A DNA stretch of 33,310 bases from Bacteroidota bacterium. GTDB lineage: Bacteria > Bacteroidota > Bacteroidia > Bacteroidales > UBA5342. This document shows positions 5,075 to 14,917 of the stretch, piece after piece. The DNA lies in assembly GCA_003249935.1 (NCBI GenBank), contig QKHT01000237.1, positions 1 through 33,310 of the forward strand. The letters run 5' to 3'. How positions within the stretch are numbered: the first letter of the stretch is position 1; each line of letters opens with the position of its first letter. The position numbers were made by a program, and so were the translations under genes. The notes under the pieces were generated by a model. It had not been told where the DNA came from, did not search any database, and saw only the letters and a program-made list of their open reading frames with translations.

Positions 5075-5800
5075 CTATTTTACGGTGAGTTTGGCCAAAT
5101 AAGCATGGTTGTCGTCGCGGCAAACCACTTCGATATCGAAACCTGCCTGCTCGGCGTAATAGGCCAGCGTGTCGTCGTCGATGTAAAACCAGTTGAACGA
5201 TTCGCCCACAATATTTTTGTATTTAAAGCTGAACCGGAACTGGCCGTAATAGTCGTTGGCTAAGTCGATATCCACATTGCCATCTTCCTCGTAAAGGTAT
5301 TTTACGTCCGAACCATCGGCCAAAATCATGCCGCCGGGGTTGAGCATGGTGCGGAGCTTGTCGAGCAGTGCCGGCAATTGCTCTACGGTTCCGGCCAAAC
5401 CAAAACCGTTCATCATGAGCAGAATGGTGTCGTAGGTGTCGAAGGCCGGAATTTCGAAAAAGTCGCCTTCGATAATTTGTTTTATGCCACGCTCACGCAT
5501 CACACGGCAGGCACCGGGGCTCCATTCGTGGGCGGTAATGTTGTGCCCTTTACTTTGCAGGTAAAGCGCGTGACTGCCGGCTCCGGCACCAATGTCGAGC
5601 ATGTGTCCCGATGCCAGCTCCATCGCTTTTTGTTCGGGAAGCGGCATTTGGTCGAACGACCTGAAAAAGTAGCTTACATCTACCTCGTCGTCTTCGAATG
5701 CATCGGATTGAACCGTAATGGTCTCATTTATTGCGCCTGCCATATAGTCGAGCAGGGCGGCTCCCAACGGGTCGGGAGCATTTATTCCAATATTTTGCAA
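5075..5800 (-). CDS. Class I SAM-dependent methyltransferase
   Basis: This 241-residue protein has motif I of class I methyltransferases at residues 67-80 (MLDIGAGAGSHALY). An acidic end of the second strand follows (HEWSPGAC), and a later LLMMNGFGLAGT segment fits motif IV. This is the Rossmann fold that binds S-adenosylmethionine. The N-terminal 60 residues are acidic and helical, and the C-terminus ends with beta-strands typical of small-molecule methyltransferases. The substrate cannot be told. Its start lies inside the end of the upstream patatin gene (19-base overlap), so the two are translationally linked. A shared terminator lies just after its stop codon. Confidence 0.85.
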   Translation of the reverse strand: MQNIGINAPDPLGAALLDYMAGAINETITVQSDAFEDDEVDVSYFFRSFDQMPLPEQKAMELASGHMLDIGAGAGSHALYLQSKGHNITAHEWSPGACRVMRERGIKQIIEGDFFEIPAFDTYDTILLMMNGFGLAGTVEQLPALLDKLRTMLNPGGMILADGSDVKYLYEEDGNVDIDLANDYYGQFRFSFKYKNIVGESFNWFYIDDDTLAYYAEQAGFDIEVVCRDDNHAYLAKLTVK

Positions 5801-10758: not shown

Positions 10759-10795
10759 TGCTTATTCTATTTTTATTTTACAGGAACACAATGTG

Positions 10796-10834
10796 GCAAC
10801 CCGAAGTCGTAAGTCTTCGGGTTGTTTGTTTTTA
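10796..10834 (+). terminator. Intrinsic terminator after pruA
   Basis: AACCCGAAG (10798-10806) pairs perfectly with CTTCGGGTT (10815-10823) around an eight-base loop, and a T-rich tail (GTTTGTTTTT) follows. Confidence 0.9.
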
Positions 10835-10916: not shown

Positions 10917-12611
10917 TTATGGTAACGAGCCGTTAACTGTTTTAAAAGGTAGTGTAAAATAAAATGCCGAACCTTTTCCCGGTTCCGATTCAAGGCGCAT
11001 TTCGCCTCCTAACAGATTGGTAAATGCTTTTGATATGGCTAATCCCAAACCGGTTCCACCATAACTTGACTGTATCGACTGGTCGGCCTGAATAAACCGG
11101 TCGAATATTTTCGTTTGATGTTCGTGTTTAATGCCAATGCCGGTATCTTTGACAAAAAATTCCAACACGGGTTCAGCCAAAATTAAAACTTGATAACCAA
11201 ATTCTATGGAGCCTTGGTGTGTAAATTTAAGCGCGTTGGTCATAAGGTTTGATAGTATTTGAGTCAGTTTTGTTTTGTCGGTTAATATTTCCGATTTCTC
11301 GTCGGAGAGTGCTCGTTTGGCAATAAGTAAAATATTTTTGTTGGTTGCCTGTGCCTTAAATGTTGTTAACAGTTCGATGATTATACTGTTTATGTTAACC
11401 GGCATGATATGAACTTTTTCCTGATTGGTTTGTACAGCCGACATGGTAAGTATATCGTTAACAATGGCCAGTAACTGATTACTACTGTTTTGAATTACTT
11501 TAATGTAGTTTTTCCGGTCATCTTCGGTAATATCCTTAAACGCCAATGCATCTGAAAAACCACAGATGGCATTGAGTGGCGTTCGTATTTCGTGCGACAT
11601 GTTTTGCAAAAAGGATGTTTTAAGACGTTCACTCTCTTCAGCCTTTTCTAAAGCCTTCATTAACGCTATTTCCGATTGTTTCATTTCTGTAATATCCTGA
11701 GATATGATCTGAACGCCAAGCACTTCGCTTTTACGGTTTTTTATGGTGGTAAATGTGCTTAAAAACCATTTTTCGGTGGTTGGCAATATAACCCGATCCT
11801 CGTAATTGATGGATTTTTCGGATGTTATTGCTTTTTGAATGCGCGTATAGTATCGCTCTGCCTCTTTTTTAGGGAATAATTGGAATACCGATTTGCCAAT
11901 AAAATCGACCGGATTGCCATTCATATGGTTTGCAGCAACCGAATTATAAGAAAGTACAAAGCCGTCGCGATCATAATAGCCGATACCCAGGCCGGCATTT
12001 TCGTGAAGCAACCTGTATTTTTCTTCGTTCTCCTCGGCTTTTTCTTTTGCTTCCTGTAATTGGATATTACGCTGTTTTAGTTCAACAGTTCGGTGGTCGA
12101 CTTCTGTTTCTAAATTATGAAACAGATATGAATTGCGAATAATTAACCCAAATACTGCCGATAGTTTTTCCAACAGATTAATGACCGATTCGATGCCGGA
12201 AAGGTCCATTACTTCGAGTAATATGATTGAACCGATTGTTTTCTGACTTGTATTAATTGGTATGGTAATGGCATTTTTTATTTCGAAATCTTTGAACAGA
12301 TGGGTTATTTCCGGCTTATTCGTCTGATCAGAGAGGTATTTGATAGAAGTAAATTGAAAACTTAATTCGCATAGCTTTAAAAATGAAGACGTTTTTATTA
12401 TTTCGGTCCGTCGTTTTGGAAATACGCTGTATATTTCCGGCTCTCCATTTTCTTTTTGTATGGCAATAACTACTGTTTTAGTGCCAATTAATTCCCGAAT
12501 CTGATGGGTTAGGTACTCTGCCAACTGGCCCGGATTGTCGGCCATTTGCAGAACATTCTGCATGATGTCGTAATAAACGTATAAAAAAGTTTTATCTTTC
12601 ATCAGAACCAT
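10917..12611 (-). CDS. Soluble GAF-PAS sensor histidine kinase, last gene of the corrinoid operon
   Basis: This 564-residue protein has an N-terminal GAF-like domain (about 15-160), a linking coiled coil (165-195), one PAS domain (197-315, starting YRLLHENAGLGIGYYD), a HisKA domain with the H-box SHEIRTPLN (phospho-acceptor His340), and a HATPase domain. In the HATPase domain, NLMTNALKF is the N-box, DTGIGI the G1 box and GGTGLGL the G2 box. There is no signal peptide, transmembrane helix or receiver domain, so it should be a cytoplasmic sensor that phosphorylates a separate response regulator not encoded nearby. Its start overlaps the DUF1638 gene by 20 bases (11 if the second ATG at 12602 is used). 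It is therefore co-translated with the corrinoid genes, and its input is probably linked to their state. The signal is unknown. Confidence 0.9.
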   Translation of the reverse strand: MVLMKDKTFLYVYYDIMQNVLQMADNPGQLAEYLTHQIRELIGTKTVVIAIQKENGEPEIYSVFPKRRTEIIKTSSFLKLCELSFQFTSIKYLSDQTNKPEITHLFKDFEIKNAITIPINTSQKTIGSIILLEVMDLSGIESVINLLEKLSAVFGLIIRNSYLFHNLETEVDHRTVELKQRNIQLQEAKEKAEENEEKYRLLHENAGLGIGYYDRDGFVLSYNSVAANHMNGNPVDFIGKSVFQLFPKKEAERYYTRIQKAITSEKSINYEDRVILPTTEKWFLSTFTTIKNRKSEVLGVQIISQDITEMKQSEIALMKALEKAEESERLKTSFLQNMSHEIRTPLNAICGFSDALAFKDITEDDRKNYIKVIQNSSNQLLAIVNDILTMSAVQTNQEKVHIMPVNINSIIIELLTTFKAQATNKNILLIAKRALSDEKSEILTDKTKLTQILSNLMTNALKFTHQGSIEFGYQVLILAEPVLEFFVKDTGIGIKHEHQTKIFDRFIQADQSIQSSYGGTGLGLAISKAFTNLLGGEMRLESEPGKGSAFYFTLPFKTVNGSLP

Positions 12612-13197
12612 TGCTTATAGGTAGGTTACTTGCAATAAGCGATAAAATCGTTTTTTCGAGTTCGGTAATCGAACTGTTGTAAATTTCTAACGGCAGGCCA
12701 ACAAAATCGGCTATTTCATTGAGCAAATGGTTGTTTGTAGGCGTATAACCCGTATTTACGTAAACTAATTTTTTGTGCATTTCGCTCATAAACGGCTTAA
12801 TTTGTTTGGACTCTTTAAATCCCATATACTCTTTAAAAACCTCTTCCCATCGTACGGCCCATTCGGGCAATAAAATAAAGGCACCCTCTTTGCGTATTTT
12901 TCTGTAATGGTCTGAACCTAAAAATATTTCGCAACAGTTAATGCCGGGTGTTCTTGTTACATTTTTGTTTACCTCGTAATCTACCATTCGGGCATGACAA
13001 TCGCCAAAGGCCAGTATAACTCTCAAATTCTTGTAATGGTTGAGTTTTTTGTCGAGTACTACTTTTAGTTTTTCGGGATACATGTGCAACATCGAATTGA
13101 CATAAACCACCGGTACATTCACTTTGCCCTCGCTGATGAGATGGTCGAGCTCGTTTTTAAAAATACTACATGCAATTATAATTGTGTTTCCTTCCAT
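12592..13197 (-). CDS. DUF1638 domain-containing protein
   Basis: This 201-residue cytoplasmic protein matches the DUF1638 pattern. It has an N-terminal strand with a cysteine (IIIACSIFKNEL, Cys10), then LHMYPEKL around residues 37-44, FGDCHARM (Cys67) in place of the usual YGxCG-like segment, and NCCEIFLGSDHY (Cys88, Cys89). The clustered cysteines and His38 could bind a metal or a cofactor. In methanogens and anaerobic bacteria this family is often encoded beside corrinoid proteins and methyltransferases, but its biochemical role is not established to my knowledge. Here it sits between the UroD-like gene (21-base gap) and the histidine kinase (overlap), which supports a shared pathway. It may be a corrinoid-handling, reductive-activation or adaptor protein. 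Confidence 0.75.
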   Translation of the reverse strand: MEGNTIIIACSIFKNELDHLISEGKVNVPVVYVNSMLHMYPEKLKVVLDKKLNHYKNLRVILAFGDCHARMVDYEVNKNVTRTPGINCCEIFLGSDHYRKIRKEGAFILLPEWAVRWEEVFKEYMGFKESKQIKPFMSEMHKKLVYVNTGYTPTNNHLLNEIADFVGLPLEIYNSSITELEKTILSLIASNLPISNGSDER

Positions 13198-13218
13198 TAT
13201 TCCATGTTATTGGTGCCA

Positions 13219-14229
13219 TTATTTGTAATTGCGTATTGTGTTTACGACTGCTTTAATCGTTTGTACCGGTGTTTGATACGGTATATCGGCATTTGAAGTG
13301 GCAAAGATAAAATGAGGGTCGTGTTTTCTGTTGTCGAGAATTTTAACACATTTACTTATTGCTTTTTCTTCGGACATATTAACAAAGTCGGGGCCATCGA
13401 AATTACCCATGAGTACAATATTGTGGTTTGTAATACTTCGTGCTTCTTCGAATTTTTCGGTTGGTTCGAGTACTATTGCAATTACGTTGGGTAGCTTTGC
13501 AAAACGGTCGGCAAAGCCAAGTATTTTTGCTCCGCCATTATGGATAACAATGGGACCGTTAATCCGGCTAAAAGCTTCGGTAAGGTATGGTATCAGGTTC
13601 GAAAATATTTTTTCGGTGATAATCATTGGTGTAGTAAAATTGACCGGTACAACTAAAAAGGTGGCACCACGGTTCAAAAATTCATTGCCCATTTTTACAA
13701 AATGATCTGAAGTAATGCGCATGATTCTATCTGTTTCCTGCGGATGAAACAGTAGCGTATCGATCCACATTTCCATACCCATAAGCAGAGCAGGTAAATC
13801 GGTTGGCGCATGGATGGGCGAACCAATGGCGTGTGTATGTTTGTATTTGCGCGACAAATTAGAAATGCCCTGAAGGAAAAATTGAATAGCATCGGATGTG
13901 TCAAAATCGGGTTCGACCAAAAGATTTGTTTGTGATAATTTGGTAATCATTGGCTTACGAACATTTGGCGCGTATTTGTCGAGGAATATGAGTTCGGAAC
14001 CGAAAGCTTCGGCTTCGAGCGGAAATGAAAATGGCGAAATAAGGATATCGGGATTAAAATGTTCGACTACAGCCTCTTGGCCTTCGAACCACATTTGGGG
14101 GCTGCGATAATATTCGGATGTTTTGCATTTAATGAGGCTTGCACCATACAACGAAAGCAGCATTGTAAAAGGCATACAATCGGTTGGTTCGCCTGTTAAT
14201 GTGCACATTATACGTTCGAGACTTGTCAT
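13219..14229 (-). CDS. Uroporphyrinogen decarboxylase (UroD/MtaA-like) family protein
   Basis: This 336-residue TIM-barrel protein belongs to the UroD superfamily. It has the N-terminal LTGEPTDCMPF (family pattern L-x-G-x-x-x-D-x-x-P), a central IGSPIHAPTDLPALLMG, VIHNGGAKILGFADRF around 228-243, LMGNFDGPDFV, and a C-terminal IPYQTPVQTIKAVV. By neighbourhood it belongs with the corrinoid methyltransferases (MtaA/MtbA/CmuA-like) rather than heme synthesis. In those enzymes a zinc ion held by His-x-Cys and a later Cys activates a thiol. Here the His is kept (His230), but the first Cys aligns with Gly232 and the second with Ala314, so zinc-thiolate chemistry looks lost or altered. The residue assignments are by eye. 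It lies 19 bases after the corrinoid protein gene. It may move or sense a methyl group on cobalamin. Confidence 0.8.
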   Translation of the reverse strand: MTSLERIMCTLTGEPTDCMPFTMLLSLYGASLIKCKTSEYYRSPQMWFEGQEAVVEHFNPDILISPFSFPLEAEAFGSELIFLDKYAPNVRKPMITKLSQTNLLVEPDFDTSDAIQFFLQGISNLSRKYKHTHAIGSPIHAPTDLPALLMGMEMWIDTLLFHPQETDRIMRITSDHFVKMGNEFLNRGATFLVVPVNFTTPMIITEKIFSNLIPYLTEAFSRINGPIVIHNGGAKILGFADRFAKLPNVIAIVLEPTEKFEEARSITNHNIVLMGNFDGPDFVNMSEEKAISKCVKILDNRKHDPHFIFATSNADIPYQTPVQTIKAVVNTIRNYK

Positions 14230-14248
14230 GGTATATTGTATTATAGCG

Positions 14249-14917
14249 TCATTTTTGCTTCATTTTCATTAATCTGTCGAATAATTCAGGCGCATTTATC
14301 GCTGTATCAGCAGTGCCATCGCCGCCTATTTCGCCCACAAGTTCGGGGCGAAGTTTAAATACTGCTCCACCAACCGCCATTTTTACTTTTTCCGACAACC
14401 CTGCCTGTTCGATGCCCTGCCGGACTTTTATAATGTTTTTGGCGGTTGTAAACATCATGGCCGAAATGGCTATGATGTCTGCACGATGTGCAATGGCTTG
14501 TTCGATAAATTGTTCGGCCGGAATGTCTGAGCCCAAATCTATAATATTCCATCCCGCCGCTTGCGCATAAATACCTACCAACCGGCGACCTAATGGGTGA
14601 AAATCGTCTTCAATATTTCCGAGAATAATGGTGCCCTTGGTTTCAGATTTGTTTGTTCGAAATGTTTCGTCGGTCGATGCAATCAGATAAAATTCTTCGG
14701 CAACTTTTCCGCTCAGGTAACCATGTGCAAGCGAGAGTTTTCCCTGCATCCATAATTTGCCCCAATGCACCAGCATTGGTTCCAATACGTTAAAAATTAC
14801 TTCCTTAAATGTAGTTTCGTAAGCCCAGTCTGTGAGCATTTTAACCGCAGAATCTTTTTCCCCTTCACTAATTAGTTCTGCAAGAATCTTTTGTTTTTCA
14901 GTGATTTCCATAAACAT
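14249..14917 (-). CDS. Corrinoid (cobalamin)-binding protein, MtbC/CarH-like
   Basis: I start at the ATG at 14917; an ATG at 14911 and a TTG at 14923 are alternatives. Residues 1-90 form a helical cap domain of the type found in methionine synthase, methanogenic corrinoid proteins and CarH photoreceptors, with HWGKLWMQGKLSLA around 51-64. From about residue 95 a flavodoxin-like B12-binding domain follows. It carries DxHxxG at 105-110 (DFHPLG), whose His107 should ligate cobalt from below, then an SAMM segment and a Gly-Gly loop (VGGAVF) near 186-191. It is the first gene of a four-gene operon with a UroD-like protein, a DUF1638 protein and a histidine kinase. In the cap, the Trp of the CarH-type W-x9-E-H signature is kept, but the Glu-His pair is Gly66-Tyr67. 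Confidence 0.88.
   Translation of the reverse strand: MFMEITEKQKILAELISEGEKDSAVKMLTDWAYETTFKEVIFNVLEPMLVHWGKLWMQGKLSLAHGYLSGKVAEEFYLIASTDETFRTNKSETKGTIILGNIEDDFHPLGRRLVGIYAQAAGWNIIDLGSDIPAEQFIEQAIAHRADIIAISAMMFTTAKNIIKVRQGIEQAGLSEKVKMAVGGAVFKLRPELVGEIGGDGTADTAINAPELFDRLMKMKQK

What the first reader, a model, noticed from the sequence alone, without database searches (positions are those of the whole stretch)
10917..14917. Four-gene corrinoid / UroD-like / DUF1638 / histidine kinase operon: a possible cobalamin-based signalling module
Seen: four minus-strand genes with gaps of 19 and 21 bases and one overlap, encoding a B12-binding protein, a UroD/MtaA-like protein, a DUF1638 protein and a soluble GAF-PAS histidine kinase. 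Known: the first three families occur together in corrinoid methyltransferase systems, usually with a substrate-specific methyltransferase (MttB, MtaB, MtbB) and a reductive activator (RamA). Neither is visible here, and the operon ends in a kinase. Inference: the corrinoid set may sense a methyl donor, light or the cobalamin state and pass it to the kinase, rather than feed carbon metabolism.
Basis: partly seen in the sequence, partly recalled or inferred. Interest (0 to 1): 0.78.

Follow-up and report, generated by a model that had tools for sequence, protein, structure and literature searches.

The report
Corrinoid trio feeding a histidine kinase
Bacteria from several phyla keep the same four genes together, three that look like parts of a vitamin B12 methyl-transfer machine and one signalling kinase, which suggests that an old metabolic machine was turned into a sensor.

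Summary
In detail: four minus-strand genes at 10917-14917 (corrinoid protein, UroD/MtaA-like, DUF1638, GAF-PAS histidine kinase). Their order is conserved in 29 further loci, whose titles name seven phyla. Corrinoid, UroD-like and DUF1638 genes lie together in 30 of 30 loci, and the kinase N-terminus follows in 29; the exception ends at its contig edge. In 393 genomes of the order, a profile of the kinase's GAF domain found close matches only beside this trio (9 full length, 1 contig-cut). GAF divergence tracks the trio (r 0.93-0.96; kinase core 0.62-0.76; 13 loci). No MttB, MtaB or RACo gene was found in the held flanks. The UroD-like protein lacks both zinc cysteines of MtaA in 30 of 30, while the corrinoid DxHxxG motif and three DUF1638 cysteines are invariant. 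This best fits a dedicated sensory cassette in which the kinase's GAF domain reads the corrinoid state of the trio. The signal is unknown: a methyl donor or redox state is likelier than light (photoreceptor EH motif 0 of 28). Nothing is tested biochemically.

The parts
14249..14917 (-). Corrinoid protein: helical cap plus B12-binding domain (B12-binding match 14297-14632), DxHxxG motif present. ATG 14917; TTG 14923 is an alternative start.
   Evidence: Pfam B12-binding 1.2e-21 and B12-binding_2 3.7e-5; DxHxxG in 28 of 28 module rows; own group in a tree of 46 B12 proteins
13219..14229 (-). UroD/MtaA-like protein (TIM barrel by family) without the zinc cysteines of MtaA
   Evidence: Pfam URO-D 1e-44; profile aligned to MtaA 4ay7; His kept 30 of 30, Cys at both ligand columns absent 30 of 30
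12592..13197 (-). DUF1638 protein, alpha/beta model, invariant C10, H38, C67, C88
   Evidence: Pfam DUF1638 1.6e-27; residues in 30 of 30 rows; model pLDDT 93.2
10917..12611 (-). Histidine kinase, GAF-PAS-HisKA-HATPase_c, no receiver domain
   Evidence: Pfam; GAF by structure
12030..12602 (-). Module-specific GAF region of the kinase
   Evidence: Match of profile A4, 1.5e-71; in 393 genomes of the order, close matches only in the 10 genomes with the trio
10795..10826 (.). Terminator-like hairpin between the kinase gene and the convergent aldehyde dehydrogenase gene
   Evidence: 12 pairs; number of such sites not above shuffles

Best explanation
The four genes are a dedicated cytoplasmic sensory cassette. 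The corrinoid protein carries cobalamin (inferred from DxHxxG and domain match). The UroD-like barrel docks on it and binds or transfers a methyl-type ligand, but is unlikely to be an MtaA-type zinc:thiol methyltransferase because both zinc cysteines are gone. DUF1638, with three invariant cysteines, keeps or resets the cobalt redox state (inferred from its genetic link to corrinoid reactivation in Phaeobacter). The state of the corrinoid complex, methylated or not, Co(I) or Co(II), is read by the specialised GAF domain of the kinase, which changes autophosphorylation and phosphorelay. Shown here: gene order, spacing, co-divergence, loss of the zinc cysteines, GAF type found only beside the trio. 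Inferred: cobalamin binding, complex formation, direction of the signal, nature of the stimulus.
For: In 29 of 30 loci, titled as seven phyla, the four genes lie in order on one strand. The kinase overlaps DUF1638 in 15 of 28 fetched loci and follows within 24 bases in 10 more. Close matches to the GAF profile occur in exactly the 10 of 393 genomes that hold the trio (nine at 1.6e-58 or better, one contig-cut at 2.1e-25); next best 3.4e-13, partial (trio genomes). Pairwise distances of the GAF region correlate with the trio at 0.93-0.96, the kinase core at 0.62-0.76 (13 loci). All 21 kinases scanned match a phosphoacceptor and an ATPase domain, and 13 a receiver domain. Zinc Cys absent 30 of 30. 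No MttB, MtaB, RACo, hydantoinase-type, pterin methyltransferase or CobW hit in 30 loci. UroD-like and DUF1638 are fused in L044/L081. In Phaeobacter, DUF1638 and a RamA-like protein both have methionine-synthesis phenotypes (PMC5764234, passages).
Against: No experiment, no known stimulus, no response regulator gene seen in the operon; no second kinase core in the 33-kb window. Two related loci hold the trio without a kinase (L049, L051), so its original job may be enzymatic. The GAF profile was built from module members, and only some first-look candidates per genome were scored. The kinase core also correlates with the trio (p 0.002 or less), and of the 13 loci tested 10 are titled Bacteroidota besides the window itself. 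14 of 29 fetched genomes have a RACo activator somewhere, MTTB occurs in 3 of 30 and MtaB in 4 of 30. Two of the three other UroD proteins of the window genome keep only the first zinc-site Cys, so partial loss is not unique to the module. All named genomes but one are MAGs, so single phylum labels may be binning errors.
Confidence: 0.72

Rival explanations
1. A metabolic corrinoid methyltransferase with its own ordinary regulator: UroD-like is the substrate methyltransferase, DUF1638 the reactivator, and the kinase only controls expression of the operon, as is proposed for the kinase MecA of the mec dichloromethane cassette.
For: A kinase beside corrinoid genes is known in the mec cassette (PMC9768040, passages). 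The trio occurs without a kinase in L049 and L051. 29 columns of the 10-row UroD alignment are invariant, ten of them polar, so a pocket may be retained.
Against: No methyltransferase or activator of the tested families lies in the held flanks, and no flank family other than a kinase/receiver-like cluster is shared by more than three loci. 13 of 21 kinases carry a receiver domain and Pfam shows no DNA-binding output in any of the 21. The GAF region co-diverges with the trio, as for binding partners.
Confidence: 0.2
2. A cobalamin photoreceptor: light cleaves alkylcobalamin in the corrinoid protein and the kinase reports it.
For: The cap has the GxxW motif in 28 of 28; photocobilins 8j2x and 8j2w are among the PDB matches.
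Against: The EH pair and the GxxH glycine of the published signature (PMC11796333, passages) are absent, 0 of 28, while 8 of 8 CarH-like controls have EH and 7 of 8 the glycine; its GxxxP part was not counted. GxxW is also present in 3 of 4 MttC controls, so it is not diagnostic. The tree puts the module apart from CarH-like and photocobilin-like rows.
Confidence: 0.06
3. A sensor of corrinoid availability or of a gas or redox signal (O2, NO, CO) that acts directly on cobalt, with the UroD-like protein as a non-catalytic scaffold. This is a narrower form of the best explanation and overlaps with it.
For: The zinc cysteines are lost, and three Cys and one His of DUF1638 are invariant, which suits a metal or redox site; GAF domains are common redox and gas sensors (established knowledge).
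Against: The invariant polar residues of the UroD-like protein argue for a retained ligand pocket. Nothing here tests redox directly.
Confidence: 0.3

Closest known systems
MtaA/MtbA methylcobamide:coenzyme M methyltransferases with MtaC/MtbC corrinoid proteins
   Same: UroD family protein beside a DxHxxG corrinoid protein; the module profile matches MtaA 4ay7 at 2.1e-14
   Different: Cys at both zinc-ligand columns absent in 30 of 30; scores far below the NCBIfam cut-offs (best 77.7 against 244 bits); a kinase in place of a substrate methyltransferase
RamA/DUF1638-linked corrinoid reactivation in Phaeobacter and Ruegeria (PMC5764234, PMC12478193; passages seen)
   Same: DUF1638 near corrinoid genes; in our alignment its three Cys are shared with the MTTB-set DUF1638 proteins
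   Different: No RACo beside the module; none found in 16 of 30 module genomes
CarH and photocobilin cobalamin photoreceptors
   Same: Cobalamin-binding domain with GxxW cap, linked to signalling
   Different: No EH pair, no GxxH glycine; separate group in the tree
mec cassette of dichloromethane fermenters (PMC9768040; passages seen)
   Same: Histidine kinase next to a corrinoid protein and UroD-family proteins
   Different: mec has an MTII, several UroD-family members and a response regulator; its kinase is reported to carry a PocR domain; no DUF1638 in the passages seen

Membership tests
MtaA-type methylcobamide:thiol methyltransferase | UroD family domain | tested here: met
   Pfam URO-D 1e-44; MtaA 4ay7 match 2.1e-14
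MtaA-type methylcobamide:thiol methyltransferase | Zinc ligands His-x-Cys and a distal Cys (ligand roles recalled; residues visible in 4ay7 as HIC and PGC) | tested here: not met
   His 30 of 30, first Cys 0 of 30, distal Cys 0 of 30; 7 rows have a Cys elsewhere in the two stretches, not at the ligand columns
Corrinoid-dependent methyltransferase system (MttB or MtaB type) | Substrate methyltransferase close by | tested here: not met
   No MttB or MtaB hit in the held flanks of 30 loci; genome-wide MTTB 3 of 30, MtaB 4 of 30, own genome none. Distance of those genes to the module beyond the held flanks unknown; MtmB, MtbB and O-demethylase types not tested
Corrinoid-dependent methyltransferase system (MttB or MtaB type) | RACo/RamA-type reductive activator close by | tested here: not met
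   None in the held flanks of 30 loci, none in own genome; elsewhere in 14 of 29 genomes
Methyltransferase-type corrinoid protein | DxHxxG motif with cap and B12-binding domains | tested here: met
   28 of 28 rows; Pfam for the window protein
Methyltransferase-type corrinoid protein | Binds cobalamin and carries a methyl group | not testable with these tools
   needs purified protein
Cobalamin photoreceptor (CarH, photocobilin) | GxxW, EH, GxxH, GxxxP signature (PMC11796333) | tested here: not met
   GxxW 28 of 28, EH 0 of 28, GxxH glycine 0 of 28; GxxxP not counted
Two-component histidine kinase | HisKA or HisKA_2 plus HATPase_c | tested here: met
   21 of 21 kinases scanned at E up to 0.001; HisKA under Pfam's cut-off in four (L068, L072, L079, L086)
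Two-component histidine kinase | Cognate response regulator | tested here: inconclusive
   Receiver domain within the kinase in 13 of 21, none in the window's kinase; a separate receiver protein directly downstream in L083
DUF1638 | Pfam DUF1638 match over cut-off | tested here: met
   96.8 bits against 27

The most novel reading that the evidence does not exclude
A new kind of signalling input: a whole corrinoid methyl-transfer complex, stripped of its zinc thiol site, repurposed as the sensor head of a two-component kinase, so that the methylation or redox state of cobalt is itself the message read by a GAF domain. The cassette occurs in genomes titled as seven phyla.
Probability: 0.42. Interest if true: 0.9.

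Novelty: new variant of a known kind. Interest (0 to 1): 0.77.

Why it matters
Cobalamin is known in signalling mainly as a light chromophore and a riboswitch ligand (recalled). A conserved cassette that couples a methyltransferase-type corrinoid complex to a histidine kinase would let anaerobes sense one-carbon compounds or redox state through cobalt chemistry. It would also give DUF1638, a family for which Price et al. had no specific functional proposal (PMC5764234, passages), a defined set of partners. One carrier, Desulfopila aestuarii DSM 18488, is a named strain rather than a MAG, so the idea is directly testable.

Tried and rejected
Light sensing: first suspected from the Trp in the cap and the photocobilin matches; set aside because GxxW also occurs in MttC and the EH pair is missing.

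Viral collection: the single UroD-like protein found no confirmed relative in viral contigs.

Fold of DUF1638: a confident model gave no clear match (Foldseek best E 5.4e-3; best VIA-align Z 8.3 over 101 residues), so no function was drawn from fold. A fold that is not listed is not excluded.

Sequence search of the single UroD-like and DUF1638 proteins in the PDB: no match at 0.001 for the first, one chance-level match at E 0.95 for the second.

Two-component neighbours: one linked group of flank proteins that contains kinases and receivers spans 13 of 29 loci (members not checked one by one), but 22 of 36 outgroup loci (L087-L122) also have a kinase-core hit somewhere in the locus, so this was not used as evidence. 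In the outgroup the window's GAF region and two DUF1638 queries hit 0 of 36, the corrinoid queries 2 of 36.

Other hits in module flanks: one MetF-like gene (L075) and one weak methyltransferase hit (L082).

Limits of the counts: some queries came from the loci themselves (kinase N-termini of L072, L079, L081, L083, L086; DUF1638 of L072, L079, L084); these proteins had already matched the window proteins. L074 holds only the last 31 residues of the corrinoid protein and L080 only part of DUF1638; DUF1638 is split in L048/L085; the kinase is cut by a contig end or broken in several loci (L058, L060, L061, L066, L067, L073, L077). Held flanks are short in many loci: at least 1 kb on both sides in 19 of 29, at least 3 kb in 13. 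The genome-contig scan used two peptide patterns, so it is not exhaustive.

Rows dropped: the co-divergence test used 13 of 30 loci (complete genes and a recognisable H-box). The B12 tree used 28 of 30 module rows (L061 and L074 too short). Alignment A3 used 27 of 30 DUF1638 rows and A4 28 of 29 kinases. Three weak DUF1638 hits (G166, G257, G296) were not inspected.

Literature: ten searches of the PMC open library (two returned no paper) showed no title or abstract describing this four-gene module; bodies of the listed papers were not read beyond the passages cited, and most subscription papers are not held.
Full report
What is there. The window is contig C139 of a 4.27 Mb draft genome (97.5% complete). 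The four minus-strand genes exist as described and their families are confirmed by Pfam: B12-binding with a weak B12-binding_2 cap, URO-D, DUF1638, and PAS, HisKA and HATPase_c. Gaps are 19 and 21 bases and the kinase overlaps DUF1638 by 20 bases. The kinase has no receiver domain.

Conservation in the order. In 393 genomes of the order, DUF1638 matched 22; ten of them, the window's included, are close, and each of the ten has corrinoid, UroD-like, DUF1638 and kinase genes in this order, the kinase cut by a contig end in L040 and L046. The two other genomes of the window's family had no match, so the cassette is patchy. In L044 the UroD-like and DUF1638 proteins are fused; in L048 DUF1638 is split into two frames. 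Nine further weak DUF1638 loci were fetched. Two (L049, L051) have corrinoid, UroD-like and DUF1638 genes without a kinase. The other seven lie in related gene sets; a protein of the MTTB-like cluster is visible in five of the seven, and in the other two (L053, L055) DUF1638 lies near the contig end (Pfam checked for L050 only). Three weak hits were not inspected.

Conservation beyond the order. A scan of the 84,980-species genome collection with the UroD alignment, using two peptide patterns, gave 65 loci: 29 at 31-69% identity, and 36 at 23% or less that are a different group. By record title the 29 are Bacteroidota (17), sulfate-reducer genera of Desulfobacterota (3; phylum for one, recalled for two), Spirochaetes (2), Riflebacteria, Nitrospirota, Clostridia, Ignavibacteriae (1 each) and three unnamed bacteria. 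tblastn found at least part of the corrinoid and DUF1638 genes in 29 of 29 and the kinase N-terminus downstream in 28 of 29; in the 29th (L080) the contig ends inside DUF1638 (some queries came from the same loci, but these proteins also matched the window's). The kinase overlaps DUF1638 in 15 of 28, follows within 24 bases in 10 and within 49-232 bases in 3. By title all 29 are MAGs except Desulfopila aestuarii DSM 18488 (L076).

The kinase belongs to the trio. A profile of the GAF region searched in the same 393 genomes gave full-length hits in nine genomes that carry the trio (1.6e-58 or better) and a contig-cut hit in the tenth (2.1e-25); the next hit is a partial 3.4e-13. The profile includes members of these loci, and only some candidates per genome were scored, so the test shows that no further close relatives surfaced rather than proving that none exist. 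Pairwise distances over 13 complete loci correlate at 0.92-0.95 within the trio, 0.93-0.96 between the trio and the GAF region, and 0.62-0.76 between the trio and the kinase core; the core's correlation is also significant (p 0.002 or less), so the claim rests on the difference. The domains after GAF vary, and 13 of 21 kinases carry a receiver domain. This is the pattern expected if GAF is the interface to the trio and the rest is exchangeable.

The trio is not a standard methyltransferase set. Aligned to MtaA (4ay7), the UroD-like protein keeps the zinc-site His in 30 of 30 but has Cys at neither ligand column (0 of 30). Of the three other UroD-family proteins of the window's genome, two keep the first Cys only (HSCG in the 357-aa protein on C30 and in the 344-aa protein on C155) and one keeps both (FVCG and PGC in the 454-aa protein on C30). 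The corrinoid protein keeps DxHxxG (28 of 28). DUF1638 keeps C10, H38, C67 and C88 (30 of 30), and its three cysteines are shared with the nine other DUF1638 proteins aligned. No MttB, MtaB, RACo, hydantoinase-type, pterin methyltransferase or CobW hit was found in the window or in the 29 fetched loci; held flanks reach 3 kb on both sides in 13 of 29. A MetF-like gene (L075) and a weak methyltransferase hit (L082) were the only other matches. Genome-wide, RACo is in 14 of 29 carriers and not in the window genome, MTTB in 3 of 30 and MtaB in 4 of 30.

Phylogeny of the corrinoid protein. In a tree of 46 B12 proteins the 28 module rows form one group (support 97/96), next to the kinase-less L049 and L051, apart from MttC/MetH and from CarH-like and photocobilin-like rows; the program warns of long branches, so the deeper order is unsure. 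The published photoreceptor signature (PMC11796333, passages) is only partly present: GxxW 28 of 28, EH 0 of 28, GxxH glycine 0 of 28; GxxxP was not counted.

Mechanism. Shown: gene order, spacing, co-divergence, a GAF type seen only beside the trio, loss of the zinc cysteines, retained cobalamin motif and DUF1638 cysteines. Known from others: mutants in DUF1638 and in a RamA-like gene of Phaeobacter are rescued by methionine, and the authors link both to B12 reactivation without a specific proposal for DUF1638 (PMC5764234, passages); both proteins are more abundant in Ruegeria grown on N-osmolytes (PMC12478193, passages). Inferred: the UroD-like barrel presents or transfers a methyl-type ligand to the corrinoid, DUF1638 maintains the cobalt redox state, and the GAF domain reads the state of this complex. 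I give 0.72 to a dedicated sensory cassette. Of stimuli, a methyl donor or the cobalt redox state are the leading guesses; neither is tested.

Counter-evidence. Trio genes without a kinase exist (L049, L051), so the ancestral role may be enzymatic. A kinase beside corrinoid genes is already known in the mec cassette (PMC9768040, passages), where regulation of expression is proposed. No response regulator lies in the operon. Nothing here shows cobalamin binding or kinase control. Most carriers are MAGs, and single phylum labels could be binning errors.

Novelty. Ten searches of the open PMC library listed no title or abstract that describes this module. Two-component kinases and cobalamin sensors are both known; this combination of parts appears new. 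I rate it a new variant of a known kind, with a real chance of being a new kind of input.

Noticed in passing
L039:3161-6927 (own genome contig C227): A 352-aa protein with a phycobilisome/globin-like domain followed by cap and B12-binding domains, with GxxW, EH and GxxH motifs; best PDB match photocobilin 8j2w (7.3e-24), apparently with the domain order swapped. It is followed at once by a 396-aa histidine kinase and a 503-aa receiver-kinase: a likely cobalamin photoreceptor kinase locus in the same genome.
   Followed up: partly
L037:852-5875 (own genome contig C30): UroD-like (HSCG kept), corrinoid protein, UroD-thioredoxin fusion, CobW, and a stand-alone methionine-synthase activation domain: a corrinoid gene set of metabolic type in a genome without RACo.
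   Followed up: partly
L049:5956-8434 and L051:3116-5748: Corrinoid, UroD-like and DUF1638 genes without a kinase in two genomes of one family; their UroD-like proteins also lack the zinc cysteines. A possible non-signalling relative.
   Followed up: partly
L050:4212-12386: DUF1638 in a gene set with two MTTB genes, a hydantoinase-like protein, a pterin-binding protein and a SAM methyltransferase; related sets in L052-L057. The hydantoinase-like protein may replace RACo there (guess).
   Followed up: no
L044:7429-9051 (same contig as L081): UroD-like and DUF1638 proteins fused into one 540-aa protein, directly followed by the kinase.
   Followed up: yes
L083:6671-8244: Spirochaete version: the kinase is of HisKA_2 type and a stand-alone receiver protein follows it directly.
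   Followed up: no
window 5075-5800: SAM-dependent methyltransferase-like protein with weak similarity to the corrinoid-protein-associated CpaM model (3.9e-4, 19.9 bits against a cut-off of 180).
   Followed up: no
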